In this document: positions 4,965 through 37,010 of the stretch, in pieces
Position numbering within the stretch: position 1 is the first letter of the stretch
How the letters are laid out: each line of letters starts with the position of its first letter
NCBI GenBank assembly: GCA_947311515.1
Contig: CAMZLB010000018.1
Span: 1-56,288 of the forward strand
Length of the DNA stretch: 56,288 nt
From: Candidatus Moraniibacteriota bacterium
GTDB lineage: Bacteria > Patescibacteriota > Minisyncoccia > Moranbacterales > GCA-2747515
Direction of reading: 5' to 3'
The notes under the pieces: model-generated
What the model saw: the letters and a program-made list of their open reading frames with translations, nothing else
Databases searched by the model: none
What the model was told of the DNA's origin: nothing
Program-made: the position numbers and the translations under genes

Positions 4965-5750
4965 ATGAGTGAATCAATATCACAACACACAAATACTGTA
5001 GCTGAGCATGTTGCAGGTCCTCATATCGCTATTGCTGCAGAGAAATTAGGTGAATTTTTTGGAATTACTATATCAAATACTCTTTTGATGAGTTGGTTTG
5101 TTATGGCTATATTGATTGTTATAGCAATTGTGGTTAATCGCTTAATTTCAGAGAAAAATCCAGGAAAATTACAAATGTTTTTTGAAATGCTTTTTGAATT
5201 TATATTAGATTTTATTGATGAAGTTTTTGAAAACAGGAAAATGACAATAGCATTTTTTCCACTTTTAGTAACTGTGTTTTTATTCATTTGGCTTTCGAAC
5301 TGGACTGAGTTTTTACCAGGAGTGAGTAGTATTACTTTTGAGACAATTAATGGAATTCAGCCGTTACTTAGAAGTGTGAATACAGACTTGAATGTGACTA
5401 TAGCGCTTGCTCTTATAGTGTTTGTTGTTATAGAGTGGACTGGTATAAAACGTCTAGGATTTTTCCAGTATGGAAAGAAATTTATAAATTTTTCATCGCC
5501 GTTAAATTTTTTCATAGGGTTAATAGAGCTCGTTAGTGAAATTGCAAAACTTATATCTTTTTCTTTTCGTTTATTTGGAAATATATTTGCTGGAGAGGTT
5601 TTGATTGCTGTTACAGTATTCTTCATACCATTTTTCTTACCTGTACCACTTATGATGTTTGAATTATTCGTTGGGTTTATACAGGCAGCAGTATTTTCAT
5701 TACTAACCTTATTTTTTGTTAAAATTGCTATTACAAAATCAGAACATTGA
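4965..5750 (+). CDS. atpB: ATP synthase Fo subunit a
   Basis: Membrane stator subunit forming the two half-channels for the coupling ion. The 261-residue protein has five or six membrane helices. The essential arginine is Arg202 in SFSFRLFGNIFAGEVL, and the partner Gln lies in VGFIQAAVFSLLTLFF in the last helix. The NWTEFLPG stretch (112-119) is the usual loop. Stops at TGA 5748-5750, immediately followed by an in-frame TAA, showing TGA is read as stop or at least backed up by a second stop. An 89-bp gap with a hairpin separates it from atpE. Confidence 0.95.
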   Translation: MSESISQHTNTVAEHVAGPHIAIAAEKLGEFFGITISNTLLMSWFVMAILIVIAIVVNRLISEKNPGKLQMFFEMLFEFILDFIDEVFENRKMTIAFFPLLVTVFLFIWLSNWTEFLPGVSSITFETINGIQPLLRSVNTDLNVTIALALIVFVVIEWTGIKRLGFFQYGKKFINFSSPLNFFIGLIELVSEIAKLISFSFRLFGNIFAGEVLIAVTVFFIPFFLPVPLMMFELFVGFIQAAVFSLLTLFFVKIAITKSEH

Positions 5751-28864: not shown

Positions 28865-31800
28865 ATGATTAATAAAAATAGTAAAATTTTAGTATTTGTA
28901 GCTAGTATGATAGTTTTTATGGGATTATTTTCTGTAGTAGATTTTTTTGTCGCACAAGCTACTTTTACGGAGCCGACAGATGCTCCACCAGGAGGAAATG
29001 TGTTGGGACCACTTACTACTGGAGCGGGAGCTCAGTGGCGTGCAGGTTCACTTGGAATAGGTACAGGAGCTCCTGCATCAGGAGCGCTTCTTTTGGATGT
29101 TGAAGGTGATGTAGGTGCTCAGCGGTATTGTGATGAGGATGGAAATAATTGTTCAACTCCTCCGTTTGGTGGCGGTGGAGTAGATGAGATAAATGATTTG
29201 TCAGATGGTCGCACTGGAGGGAATTCTGTATTTTTGGGTTCTGGTGCTGGAGTAAATGATGATTTGACAAGTAATAATAACGTATTTTTAGGTATAAATG
29301 CAGGAGAGACAAATACATCAGGTGAAGGAAATAGTGCGATGGGCTTTTACGCTCTTAGGAGTAATATAAGTGGTTCAGATAATACAGCAATTGGAAGTAG
29401 ATCTTTGTATGATAATACTACAGGTGATTACAATATAGCAATAGGTGCATACGCTCTTGAGACTAATACAACGGGTTTACGAAATACAGCAGTAGGTCAT
29501 GAATCTATGGAGTCAAATATTTCTGGAGAAAGTAATTCAGCATTAGGTGCGCATGCTCTCAGAGATAATACAACTGGTATAGAAAATACTGCCATAGGAC
29601 TAGATTCTATGAAAGATAATGTAAGTGGCAATTATAATTCAGCCCTTGGTTCACATTCTATGAATAACAATACGGTAGGAGCATATAATTCAGCTTTTGG
29701 ACATAACTCTATGAGGATAAATACTGCAGGAGGTCATAATTCAGCATTTGGTCATGAGTCATTAGGATCAAATACAACAGGAGAAGGTAATGTAGCTGTT
29801 GGTGCACATTCAACAGTTACAAATACTACAGGAAATTGGAATACTGCTATAGGTTATAATAGTCTAATGAATAATATAATGGGCTCTGAAAATGTTGTAG
29901 CTGGAGAGGGTGCTCTCTACACGAATACAATGGGTTCAAATAATACAGCAATTGGAACTTCATCTTTGTATTCTAATGCTGCAGGAGATAATAATGTTGC
30001 ACTTGGAGATGGTGCTCTCTACGCAAATACTGATTCAAATAATACAGCAATTGGAACTTCATCTTTGTATTCTAATACTACAGGAGATAATAATGTTGCA
30101 CTTGGAGAGAGTGCTCTTTACGCAAATATAACTGCTTCAGGTAATACAGCAATTGGAACTGAATCTTTGCATTCTAATACTACAGGAGAGTTTAATTCAG
30201 CGTTTGGATATAGCTCTTTGTATTATAATACTTCTGGAAATGATAATATTGCAATGGGTTTAGATGCTCTTATGAGTAATACAAGTGGTTCAGATAATGT
30301 AGCAATTGGACTTGATTCTTTGTATAGTCATACTACAGGTGATTACAATATAGCAATAGGTCGATATGCTCTTAGAACTAGCACAACTGCTTCAAATAAT
30401 GTAGCAATTGGAACTGAATCTTTATATTATAATACTAATGGCATTGAAAATACGGCTATAGGAGCTAATTCAGGTGATTCTATTACAAGTGGTGCTAATA
30501 ATGTTACAGTAGGTGCTAGTGCAGGAGATAATATAACAACTGGTAGTAGAAATATAATAATTGGAGAAAATACTAATGCATCTTCTCCTACAGGGGACAA
30601 TCAATTAAATATCGGAGATACGATATATGGATATACTGATACTGCTAGAATTAGTATAGGAGATGAAACACCAGATGGAGCATTGAAACTGGATGTTGAA
30701 GGACAAATTGGAGCGACTCATTATTGTGATGAAGATGGAAATAATTGTGTAGCTGCGGGCTCTTTTGGTGGTGGAGGTGGCGGTGGAGCAAATGAGATAA
30801 ATGATTTGTCAGATGGTCGTACTGGAGGGAATTCTGTATTTTTGGGTTCTGGTGCTGGAGTAAATGATGATTTGACAAGTAATAATAACGTATTTTTAGG
30901 TATAAATGCAGGAAATGCAAATACATCAGGTGAAGAAAATTCAGGAATTGGATATCAATCTCTATATTCAAATACTACAGGAAAAAATAATACAGCATTA
31001 GGTATCAATAGTTTATATGCAAATACAACAGGAGGTTATAATTCAGCACTTGGACATGATGCGTTAAAATTAAGCACAACAGGAGGTCATAATTCAGCAT
31101 TTGGACATAAGGCACTAGAATCAAATACAACAGGATATGAAAATGTATCTATTGGTGCACATTCTTTGAGTTTTAATACTACTGGAAGCGATAATGTAGC
31201 TGTAGGTTTTGAATCTTTATTTTCAAATACAGCTTCAAATAATACAGCAATTGGATATCAATCAATGTATACAAATACTACAGGAAGAGATAATTCAGCA
31301 TTTGGATATGAATCATTAGAATTAAATACAACAGGAATTGAAAATGTGGCTATTGGCACACATTCAGAAGCTCTAAACACTGCAGGAAGTTATAATGTAG
31401 CTCTAGGTGTGCAGTCTCTATATTCCAATGCAACAGGAGTATCTAACACAGCAATAGGTTCTTACGCTCTTAATGGTAATACAGCTTCACAAAATACAGC
31501 AATCGGAACTTCATGTTTGTATACTAATACTACAGGTAGTAGCAATGTAGCAATGGGTTATTACGCTCTTGTAAGTAATACAACTGCTTCAGGTAATACA
31601 GCAATTGGAACCGAATCTTTGTACTCAAATACTTCTGGAGGTGATAATACGGCTATAGGAGCTAATTCAGGTGATTCTATTACAAGTGGTGCTAATAATG
31701 TTACAGTAGGTGCTAATGCAGGAGATAATATAACATCAGGTAGTAATAATATAGTAATTGGTGCAAATATAGATATCGCATCTGCTACAGCAAGTGATCA

Positions 31801-32257
31801 AATAAATATTGGAAATGCTTTCAAGAGAGATAATAGTGGAAATATTGATATAGACGCAGGAACTAACGAAATAGATTTAACGGCTTTAACTATAAGGCAT
31901 AATGGAACTTCGATTCATAGTTCTGATAAACGACTTAAAAAAAATATAGAAACTGTTAATGGACTAGATGTTATAAATAAATTAAGAGGAGTTGAATTTG
32001 CATGGAAAAAGAATGACATAGAGTCAGCAGGTGTGATAGCTCAAGAGATTGAGGAAGTTTTACCAAATTTAGTTCACGAGAGTGAAGATTATAAAATGGT
32101 AGAATACAATGCACTTTCTGCGTATTTTATAGAGAGTATAAAAGAGCTTAGTGATGAGGTAGATAATTTAAATGATTATGCAGAAAAACAAGAAAAGATT
32201 ATAGAAAGTCAACAAAAACAGATAAATCAACTGTTATTAATGGTTGATTCTGAGTGA
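28865..32257 (+). CDS. Giant repeat surface protein with YadA-head-like repeats and C-terminal peptidase S74 chaperone domain
   Basis: The 1130-residue protein begins with a signal/anchor helix (about 8-31) and a TFTEPTDAPPGGNV region typical of patescibacterial surface proteins. Two similar modules follow, each with an LDVEG-YCDEDGNNC segment and EINDLSDGRTGGNS, then an array of 17-residue repeats of the form N-x-A-x-G-x-x-S/A-L-x-x-N-T-T-G-x-x: 26 copies (residues 139-579) and 18 copies (675-978). These are left-handed beta-roll repeats like the head of trimeric autotransporter adhesins. The C-terminus is a peptidase S74 intramolecular chaperone: SDKRLKKN with the Ser1020/Lys1025 dyad, GVIAQEIEEVLPNLV, and a terminal coiled coil. 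It should trimerise, self-cleave before Ser1020 and be displayed outside the cell. An IS or phage origin is not indicated by the neighbours. Confidence 0.85.
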   Translation: MINKNSKILVFVASMIVFMGLFSVVDFFVAQATFTEPTDAPPGGNVLGPLTTGAGAQWRAGSLGIGTGAPASGALLLDVEGDVGAQRYCDEDGNNCSTPPFGGGGVDEINDLSDGRTGGNSVFLGSGAGVNDDLTSNNNVFLGINAGETNTSGEGNSAMGFYALRSNISGSDNTAIGSRSLYDNTTGDYNIAIGAYALETNTTGLRNTAVGHESMESNISGESNSALGAHALRDNTTGIENTAIGLDSMKDNVSGNYNSALGSHSMNNNTVGAYNSAFGHNSMRINTAGGHNSAFGHESLGSNTTGEGNVAVGAHSTVTNTTGNWNTAIGYNSLMNNIMGSENVVAGEGALYTNTMGSNNTAIGTSSLYSNAAGDNNVALGDGALYANTDSNNTAIGTSSLYSNTTGDNNVALGESALYANITASGNTAIGTESLHSNTTGEFNSAFGYSSLYYNTSGNDNIAMGLDALMSNTSGSDNVAIGLDSLYSHTTGDYNIAIGRYALRTSTTASNNVAIGTESLYYNTNGIENTAIGANSGDSITSGANNVTVGASAGDNITTGSRNIIIGENTNASSPTGDNQLNIGDTIYGYTDTARISIGDETPDGALKLDVEGQIGATHYCDEDGNNCVAAGSFGGGGGGGANEINDLSDGRTGGNSVFLGSGAGVNDDLTSNNNVFLGINAGNANTSGEENSGIGYQSLYSNTTGKNNTALGINSLYANTTGGYNSALGHDALKLSTTGGHNSAFGHKALESNTTGYENVSIGAHSLSFNTTGSDNVAVGFESLFSNTASNNTAIGYQSMYTNTTGRDNSAFGYESLELNTTGIENVAIGTHSEALNTAGSYNVALGVQSLYSNATGVSNTAIGSYALNGNTASQNTAIGTSCLYTNTTGSSNVAMGYYALVSNTTASGNTAIGTESLYSNTSGGDNTAIGANSGDSITSGANNVTVGANAGDNITSGSNNIVIGANIDIASATASDQINIGNAFKRDNSGNIDIDAGTNEIDLTALTIRHNGTSIHSSDKRLKKNIETVNGLDVINKLRGVEFAWKKNDIESAGVIAQEIEEVLPNLVHESEDYKMVEYNALSAYFIESIKELSDEVDNLNDYAEKQEKIIESQQKQINQLLLMVDSE
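29184..29305 (+). repeat. Direct repeat copy 1, 122 bp
   Basis: Identical to 30792-30913 (offset 1608 bp) except at position 29212 (C here, T there). Encodes the EINDLSDGRTGGNS-to-NVFLGINAG stretch opening each repeat module. Confidence 0.95.
29279..30601 (+). repeat. First array of 26 seventeen-residue (51-bp) repeats
   Basis: Twenty-six protein repeats starting at Asn139; one copy (no. 15) is 16 residues long. At DNA level copies are diverged except neighbours such as nos. 14-18, where AATACAGCAATTGGAACT recurs. Confidence 0.9.
30792..30913 (+). repeat. Direct repeat copy 2, 122 bp
   Basis: Partner of 29184-29305 with one mismatch. A further near-identical pair of about 90 bp sits at the far ends of the arrays (about 30449-30538 and 31646-31735), marking the boundaries of a duplicated module. 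Confidence 0.95.
30887..31798 (+). repeat. Second array of 18 seventeen-residue repeats
   Basis: Eighteen protein repeats from Asn675 to residue 978; two copies (nos. 7 and 12) have 16 residues. The last copies (GANSGDSITSGAN, GANAGDNITSGSN) match the end of array 1. Confidence 0.9.
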
Positions 32258-32293: not shown

Positions 32294-33049
32294 ATGGAAA
32301 AAAGAATTTTGAAAGAGTTGGAAAGTAAGGATGGTGAAACTAGAGTTTTTATATTTTCCTTGATTATAATATCGGCAATAATTATTTTTTTTGGAACTGT
32401 TTTTATAATTGGAGGTAGTAAGATAAATAATTCAATTAAAAATGAGGAAATGCTACTTAATAAATCAGAAGTAGTCAATAATAAAAAATACAAAATTTTA
32501 TCAAATAATGCAAAGATTGAAGGAATGGCTGAGATGGATATGATAAAAAAAGATGGTTCTATAAATGTGAGTTATTTTATACATATTACAGAGAATTTGC
32601 CTGCAAATAAAAAATGTTTTGAAAATGATGAGGATACAGATGATAATTGTAGATATATTGATTTTTATAATTATGTAGTATCTATTAATGATGGTGATAA
32701 TGATAGGGGCATTATAGGAAGATTGTATCCTATATTTTGTTCTTCTTTTGCTAACTTGTCAGAATCAAAGACTCTTTATGATTCTTATACTAGTTGTTGG
32801 CAAGGAGAAAAAAAGAATAAATATCAACATACTGATAAATATTTTATAAAAATCGATACCTCATATGATACATTAGATGATTTTTTGGCTAGTAGTGTTA
32901 TTGATATATATGATGCAAAAGACTATACTGAAAGAACAAATATTACAAAAAATAAAATGACTACTAACACGGAAGTGATTCATGTAGAAAATGCAGTCAA
33001 AAATGGTAATGTAATAAAAAAATATAAATTTAAGATAGTTGAGTTATAA
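32294..33049 (+). CDS. Membrane-anchored hypothetical protein
   Basis: Unrecognised 251-residue protein: a charged cytoplasmic N-terminus, one membrane helix (about 19-41, FIFSLIIISAIIIFFGTVFIIGG), and an extracytoplasmic domain of about 200 residues with four cysteines (KCFENDEDTDDNC, FCSSF, SCWQG) that could form two disulphides. The acidic DGDNDRG loop near 138 might bind calcium. It follows the S74 surface protein by 36 bp in the same direction, so it may be co-transcribed and act with it, but nothing shows this directly. Confidence 0.6.
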   Translation: MEKRILKELESKDGETRVFIFSLIIISAIIIFFGTVFIIGGSKINNSIKNEEMLLNKSEVVNNKKYKILSNNAKIEGMAEMDMIKKDGSINVSYFIHITENLPANKKCFENDEDTDDNCRYIDFYNYVVSINDGDNDRGIIGRLYPIFCSSFANLSESKTLYDSYTSCWQGEKKNKYQHTDKYFIKIDTSYDTLDDFLASSVIDIYDAKDYTERTNITKNKMTTNTEVIHVENAVKNGNVIKKYKFKIVEL

Positions 33050-36350: not shown

Positions 36351-37010
36351 CTAATCTTCTACAGAATATCTAGCATGGTCTCCAGCATATGGACGCCACC
36401 ATTTGCCAAAAAAGTCTTTTTTTTTGACTCTTGAGCCTATTTTTATAAAATCAAATCTAGCACTGCCACGCATACCGTTTATAGAATCATGGATATAAAC
36501 ATACTTTAGCTTGTATCTTCCATTCTTTTTACGAATTTTGGCACCATAGACTAATAACCAGTGTTGACCTGGGTGGTATTCTTTTTTGCCCTCTGCATTT
36601 ACATATACAGTTGTACCAGAGATTGCAATAGGTCTGCGTTGCTTTATGATTTCATTATAAAGTCTTTTTTCAGCACTCTCTATGTTTCTGTGTCTATCTC
36701 TCTGAAATTTTTTACCAGTATAAGATCTGAGAATTCTTCTTAACTCCCAAGCTTGGATTCCTCCACTATATGGATATGTGTCCCAATATAGAAAACTTTT
36801 GAATTGTTTTCTTAGTCTTGATTCAGCAGGAAGTTTCCTGTTTATTTGATATATCCACATTCTAGCGACTGCTAAGCCACATGAGACGCTAGTCTCCTGG
36901 GGAAAATGTGGTGGTACAGGGTAGATAACACGCCTCTTGTATTCACTAGATGAGAGGTTAGTTATTGCTAATAAGCTTGAAATAAATACCGTTGAAAGTA
37001 ATTTTTTCAT
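36351..37010 (-). CDS. Secreted C39-like cysteine peptidase
   Basis: The 219-residue protein has a signal peptide (MKKLLSTVFISSLLAITNLSS) and the active-site plan of the C39/papain-like peptidases: Gln38 (oxyanion hole) and nucleophile Cys44 in PQETSVSCGLAVARM, His150 in GQHWLLVYGA, and Asp175 in VYIHDSI. The mature part is unusually basic (many Arg and Lys). A Shine-Dalgarno AAAGGA lies 7 nt before the ATG. Base composition here is noticeably richer in GC (about 40% in the part I counted) than the surrounding genes, suggesting transfer. Substrate unknown; peptidoglycan cross-links or proteins are both possible. Confidence 0.7.
   Translation of the reverse strand: MKKLLSTVFISSLLAITNLSSSEYKRRVIYPVPPHFPQETSVSCGLAVARMWIYQINRKLPAESRLRKQFKSFLYWDTYPYSGGIQAWELRRILRSYTGKKFQRDRHRNIESAEKRLYNEIIKQRRPIAISGTTVYVNAEGKKEYHPGQHWLLVYGAKIRKKNGRYKLKYVYIHDSINGMRGSARFDFIKIGSRVKKKDFFGKWWRPYAGDHARYSVED

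What the first reader, a model, noticed from the sequence alone, without database searches (positions are those of the whole stretch)
28865..32257. Giant adhesin-like protein combining 44 beta-roll repeats with an S74 self-cleaving chaperone
Peptidase S74 domains are best known from phage tail fibres and endosialidases, where they trimerise and then cut themselves off. Here one is fused to two arrays of YadA-head-like 17-residue repeats behind a bacterial signal/anchor, in a genome region without phage genes. A chromosomal trimeric surface fibre used for host attachment by an episymbiont would fit.
Basis: partly seen in the sequence, partly recalled or inferred. Interest (0 to 1): 0.65.

Follow-up and report, generated by a model that had tools for sequence, protein, structure and literature searches.

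The report
Secreted self-cleaving trimeric surface fibre
A Patescibacteria genome encodes a long exported fibre whose last part probably helps three copies fold together and then cuts itself off; this is a common design, shared with phage tail spikes and predatory-bacterium adhesins, and not a new kind of protein.

Summary
ORF 28865-32257 (1130 aa) has an export signal, 44 in-register 17-residue coils (26 + 18) in two arrays, and a Peptidase_S74 domain (E = 3e-15) with an intact SDxxxK motif (S1020, K1025) followed by a long C-terminal helix. AlphaFold models the coils and chaperone confidently; nearest solved folds are the S74 chaperones of MyRF and endosialidase, and the trimeric adhesin CbpF. 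The flanks are housekeeping and envelope genes. The N-terminus matches no phage in the collection searched, so this is a cellular exported fibre, not a prophage tail fibre.

It is not unusual. Coils fused to S74 occur in phage tail spikes (SPO1, P-SSM2, Roseobacter phages) and in many bacteria. S74 is found in 92 of 380 Patescibacteria genomes sampled. Bdellovibrio MAT fibres are an experimentally studied precedent. Host attachment is plausible but untested.

What looks undescribed is the setting. Related genomes share the same N-terminal module on fibres with S74 or other C-termini. The fibre gene usually sits beside a 'GWxW/GWIS' secreted protein and small one-pass membrane proteins. This resembles a Patescibacteria counterpart of the MAT repertoire. 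In the window genome the GWxW gene is on another contig.

The parts
28865..32257 (+). fibre gene, 1130 aa
   Evidence: GC3 0.13 against 0.16-0.22 in nine window genes
28865..28960 (+). signal peptide aa 1-32, SPase I-like site AQA|TFTEP
   Evidence: sequence; Ala at -1 and Ala/Val at -3 before [WF]xEP in most of the 18 relatives listed
28961..29062 (+). conserved N-module 'FTEPTDAPPGGNVLGPLTTGAGAQWRAGSLGIG', aa 33-66
   Evidence: HMM built without the window protein finds it, E = 1.3e-12; no phage match for aa 1-112
29063..29227 (+). stalk 1 with CDEDGNNC (aa 89-96)
   Evidence: motif repeated at aa 621-628 and in L063 and L242
29228..30604 (+). array 1, 26 in-register 17-aa coils plus an imperfect first coil, aa 122-580
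30605..30832 (+). stalk 2 with second CDEDGNNC, aa 581-656
   Evidence: internal duplicate of stalk 1; aa 106-147 vs 642-683 are 123/126 nt identical
30833..31804 (+). array 2, 18 in-register 17-aa coils plus an imperfect first coil, aa 657-980
   Evidence: predicted strand per coil, pLDDT mostly above 90 from aa 760 on
31805..31921 (+). short segment before the chaperone, aa 981-1019; model partly uncertain
   Evidence: pLDDT below 50 over most of it
31922..32077 (+). Peptidase_S74 domain aa 1020-1071; S1020 codon 31922-31924, K1025 codon 31937-31939; predicted cleavage before S1020
   Evidence: fold match to MyRF ICA 7dc3 and 3gud
32105..32251 (+). 49-residue C-terminal helix aa 1081-1129, probable trimeric coiled coil
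   Evidence: equivalent helix drives trimerisation in MyRF (PMC8326128)
32294..33049 (+). single-TM protein, 251 aa, possible partner, 36 nt downstream
   Evidence: one TM segment; homologue in one congener that lacks the fibre

Best explanation
The gene encodes a secreted homotrimeric surface fibre. Shown by sequence: an export signal, a conserved N-terminal module, two long arrays of 17-residue coils and a C-terminal S74 chaperone. Inferred from S74 proteins studied elsewhere: after export three chains are brought together by the C-terminal coiled coil and S74 domain, the coils fold into a trimeric beta-roll rod, and correct trimer assembly triggers S1020/K1025 self-cleavage before S1020. 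The ~110-residue chaperone is released and a mature fibre of about 987 residues per chain remains. Inferred and unproven: the fibre stays on the cell surface through the N-module and its distal end binds a host or neighbour glycan or other surface.
For: PF13884 at E = 3e-15 with SDxxxK intact. AlphaFold model of aa 760-1130, pLDDT 87, coils mostly above 90, chaperone mostly 92-97, 49-residue C-terminal helix. Best PDB folds: MyRF ICA domain (E = 1.2e-3, prob 1.00), trimeric adhesin CbpF (5.3e-3, prob 0.99), endosialidase chaperone 3gud. N-module with signal peptide found by independent HMM and absent from 50,697 phage records. No phage genes in the flanks. A full-architecture homologue exists in the same family (L063). 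Bdellovibrio Bd3182 shows S74 self-cleavage abolished by S782A, and MAT fibres were localised on the predator surface (PMC10769870). MyRF shows cleavage only when trimeric (PMC8326128).
Against: No trimer could be modelled (monomer prediction only). The PDB fold matches are above E = 0.001. No surface anchor is identifiable: the Pfam scan gave no YadA barrel and no cell-wall anchor domain. The congener G001 has no match, so the gene is accessory (that genome is 92% complete). No binding target or expression data.
Confidence: 0.75

Rival explanations
1. It is a prophage or remnant phage tail fibre/spike gene.
For: The repeats plus S74 match 434 phage records, nine of them covering at least 80% of the query, annotated as tail spike or tail structural proteins; PHROG tail spike and virion families score up to 3e-130.
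Against: No phage genes around it; N-terminal 112 aa match no phage but match a secretion-signal module in 21 other genomes of the relatives set; GC3 is like that of its neighbours; the full-architecture homologue L063 also sits among cellular genes.
Confidence: 0.06
2. It is a released or matrix protein, or a structural S-layer-like rod, and not an adhesin: the fibre is exported and processed but serves spacing, biofilm or shielding.
For: No surface anchor found; repetitive low-complexity rod without a recognised binding domain; the 17-aa coils are Asn/Gly/Ser/Thr-rich.
Against: S74 fibres with known function bind glycans (endosialidases, T5 fibre) or recognise prey (MAT), per PMC10769870; tips vary between close relatives (L063 vs L242), as expected for binding specificity.
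Confidence: 0.3
3. The S74 domain acts as a chaperone only, without cleavage, so the coiled coil stays at the fibre tip.
For: Cleavage cannot be tested by sequence; no call bears on it directly.
Against: S and K of the catalytic dyad and the surrounding SDxRLKK and GxIAQE motifs are all intact.
Confidence: 0.1

Closest known systems
Bdellovibrio bacteriovorus MAT (mosaic adhesive trimer) fibres, S74 subgroup (Bd3182)
   Same: Chromosomal, signal peptide, fibre ending in self-cleaving S74 with SDxxxK; family with S74 and non-S74 tips on a shared N-terminal part (PMC10769870).
   Different: MATs have a ~130-aa conserved beta-rich domain after the signal peptide and beta-helical stalks; here a ~34-aa PPGGN module and long 17-aa coil arrays. 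N-module not found in three Bdellovibrionota S74 proteins tested, none of them an HD100 MAT.
Phage tail spikes with 17-aa coils and S74 (SPO1 gp2.52, P-SSM2 tail fibre, Roseobacter phage CRP-1)
   Same: Same coil arrays followed by S74, up to 87% of the query covered at 30-38% identity in the full-length matches.
   Different: Virion proteins; the signal peptide and N-module were not found in them.
Trimeric autotransporter adhesins (YadA, CbpF)
   Same: Predicted beta-roll coils resemble the CbpF adhesin fold.
   Different: No YadA beta-barrel anchor and no YadA head profile match; trimerisation and maturation by S74 instead.
MyRF ICA domain
   Same: Best solved fold match of the C-terminal domain; Ser-Lys dyad cleavage in trimers.
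   Different: Eukaryotic membrane transcription factor; cleavage frees the N-terminal fragment from a membrane.

Membership tests
Peptidase_S74 / intramolecular chaperone auto-processing proteins | PF13884 domain above gathering score near the C-terminus | tested here: met
   56.7 bits vs 22, aa 1020-1071
Peptidase_S74 / intramolecular chaperone auto-processing proteins | SDxxxK Ser-Lys dyad | tested here: met
   S1020, D1021, K1025
Peptidase_S74 / intramolecular chaperone auto-processing proteins | C-terminal helix forming a trimeric coiled coil | tested here: inconclusive
   49-residue helix predicted; trimer not modelled
Peptidase_S74 / intramolecular chaperone auto-processing proteins | self-cleavage before the catalytic Ser | not testable with these tools
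   needs expression
Trimeric autotransporter (type Vc) | C-terminal YadA beta-barrel anchor | tested here: not met
   no such Pfam hit at E < 1
Trimeric autotransporter (type Vc) | left-handed beta-roll head coils | tested here: inconclusive
   one predicted strand per 17-aa coil; CbpF hit E = 5.3e-3, prob 0.99; no head profile hit
MAT fibres | signal peptide, fibre and S74 with SDxxxK | tested here: met
MAT fibres | conserved ~130-aa beta-rich N-terminal domain | tested here: inconclusive
   no similarity to three Bdellovibrionota S74 proteins, two of them cut at the 5' end; HD100 MATs not compared
Phage tail fibre | lies among virion genes | tested here: not met

The most novel reading that the evidence does not exclude
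The gene belongs to an undescribed, order-wide modular surface-fibre system of Paceibacteria-type Patescibacteria: a shared secretion/N-terminal module (WTEPxxxPPGGNxxAPLN) carries exchangeable bodies and tips (S74 and non-S74), and is made together with a conserved secreted GWxW/GWIS protein and one-pass membrane proteins. It would be a Patescibacteria counterpart of the Bdellovibrio MAT repertoire, used for recognising host cells.
Probability: 0.4. Interest if true: 0.6.

Novelty: new member of a known kind. Interest (0 to 1): 0.35.

Why it matters
How Patescibacteria attach to hosts is largely open. A self-processing fibre family with a recognisable N-terminal module and a conserved neighbour gene gives named candidates to localise and delete or block in cultivable relatives. 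The protein alone adds another member to a large and partly characterised S74 fibre class.

Tried and rejected
Prophage origin: rejected from flanks and N-terminus. Sequence-level YadA head or anchor: no Pfam hit. NCBIfam: no family. A conserved fibre-partner role for the gene 32294-33049: it has a homologue in only one of 16 family genomes, and that one lacks the fibre, so unproven. Single-sequence AlphaFold of aa 33-352: pLDDT 53, not used. Literature searches for S74 or endosialidase chaperones in Patescibacteria: no relevant papers in the library held. Recent horizontal transfer from composition: GC 0.35 is above the window's 0.29 but GC3 is not elevated, so this reflects the amino-acid make-up.

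Full report
Observation. The ORF 28865-32257 (+) encodes 1130 aa. Pfam gives one significant domain, Peptidase_S74, at aa 1020-1071 (E = 3e-15). Between aa 122 and 980 two arrays of 17-residue units stay in register: 26 units in the first and 18 in the second, 44 in all. The two arrays are each preceded by a stalk with CDEDGNNC. The two modules are internal duplicates, and aa 106-147 versus 642-683 are 123/126 identical at DNA level, a recent duplication or conversion.

Export. The first 32 residues form a signal peptide with an A-x-A site before TFTEP (sequence reading; no signal-peptide predictor was available). The following ~34 residues are a conserved module, consensus AWTEPxxxPPGGNxxAPLNTGxxxQxKxGGL. 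An HMM built from 18 relatives without the window protein finds it at E = 1.3e-12. The first 112 aa match nothing in 50,697 phage records. How the mature chain is held on the cell is unknown.

Chaperone. S1020, D1021 and K1025 are conserved in practically all aligned relatives (the set is partly selected on this motif). AlphaFold on aa 760-1130 gives pLDDT 87 overall, most coil residues above 90, the chaperone fold, and a 49-residue terminal helix. Foldseek against the PDB puts the MyRF ICA domain first (7dc3, E = 1.2e-3, probability 1.00). The trimeric adhesin CbpF (9gh4, E = 5.3e-3, probability 0.99) and endosialidase chaperones 3gud/3gw6 follow. These E-values are modest, so the fold match for the coils is suggestive. 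Viral predicted structures match strongly, 244 at E <= 0.001.

Cellular or viral. Repeats plus S74 occur in 434 phage records, nine covering at least 80% of the query, including tail spikes of SPO1 and P-SSM2 and Roseobacter phages among the best matches. The neighbourhood here is Lgt, WecG/TagA and GT4 glycosyltransferases, Glu-tRNA ligase, a PIF1-type helicase, endonuclease III, FBPase and MurJ, with no virion genes. Together with the N-module this makes it a cellular protein that shares a building plan with phage spikes.

Distribution. S74 is present in 31 of 57 near relatives and 92 of 380 Patescibacteria genomes. The 17-aa coils are in 41 of 380, and several genomes carry both in one frame, for example G101 (8840 aa), G147, G202, G166, G154, G111, G279, G241 and G430 (searches compared). 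Among 80 named bacterial and archaeal loci with S74, ten have at least three such coils. So the combination is recurrent. The window genome has one S74 gene; the congener G001 has no match to the protein.

A modular family. L063 (G011, same family) has the same plan: N-module, CDxxGxxC stalks, two arrays, S74, helix. L242 (G013, same family) shares the N-module, six such stalks and two arrays but ends in a different tip without S74 (Pfam finds no S74 in it). Across relatives, the N-module is in 22 of 57 genomes; eight of the listed proteins, the window protein included, end in S74 and the others do not. Phylum-wide it is in 22 of 380, concentrated in the same class.

A conserved neighbour. In most loci examined the N-module gene lies beside a secreted protein with GWxWGG, GWIS, GYAWS, GWARI and GGWxGWI motifs and next to small single-TM proteins. 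Over 57 genomes the N-module and GWxW genes co-occur in 19 (22 and 24 carriers; Fisher p = 1e-7, not corrected for relatedness). By coordinates they lie close together in about 16 of these. In the window genome the GWxW gene is on contig C22 next to smpB, not at the fibre. In the sister-genus loci L063 and L242, smpB, GWxW and the fibre are together. The fibre gene therefore seems to have moved, or been acquired separately, in the window's genus.

Mechanism. By analogy with S74 proteins studied in vitro, three chains assemble through the terminal coiled coil, the coils fold as a trimeric rod, and S1020/K1025 cleave before S1020, releasing the chaperone. Bd3182 of Bdellovibrio shows this cleavage and its loss in the Ser-to-Ala mutant, and MAT proteins appear on the predator surface, one of them binding surface glycans (PMC10769870). 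MyRF shows that cleavage needs trimers (PMC8326128). Steps shown here: export signal, conserved dyad, coil and chaperone folds. Steps inferred: trimerisation, cleavage, surface retention, binding.

Verdict. A real, cellular, S74-terminated fibre; a new member of a known kind. The wider modular locus is the most interesting lead and is undescribed in the papers searched.

Noticed in passing
L060:5671-6876, L056:3375-4520, L063:7591-8658, L242:381-1454, L273:2685-3719, L271:3372-4484, L275:3399-4460: Conserved secreted GWxW/GWIS/GYAWS protein family next to N-module fibre genes and single-TM genes; not recognised by Pfam apart from Big_2 domains in L060.
   Followed up: partly
L242:1667-7858: Frame of 2064 aa with the same N-module, six YCDxxGxxC stalks and two coil arrays but a non-S74 tip ending DGTSWWVK: apparent tip exchange with L063.
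   Followed up: partly
window 29180-29305 and 30788-30913: Intragenic duplicate, 123/126 nt identical (aa 106-147 vs 642-683), suggesting recent duplication or gene conversion.
   Followed up: yes
L153, frame starting near 5292: Bacteriovoracaceae S74 protein whose N-terminus looks like a type IV prepilin (GFAIVEVLIAAALLGG), a pilin-S74 fusion.
   Followed up: no
L035, L038, L041, L043, L045, L050 and others: Second S74 group in the order: giant proteins (up to 4025 aa) with ~300 residues after the S74 motif and a different N-terminus (LTYHGKLTD in several).
   Followed up: no
L232 (G101:C7:585000-600000): 8840-aa open frame with the same coils and an S74 domain.
   Followed up: no
window 36351-37010 (-): Secreted protein with a sequence resembling C39-like cysteine peptidases (FPQETSVSCGLAVARMW); no Pfam hit.
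   Followed up: no
L270:1155-9239: Tandem cluster of four N-module genes with GWxW-like and single-TM genes repeated between them.
   Followed up: partly
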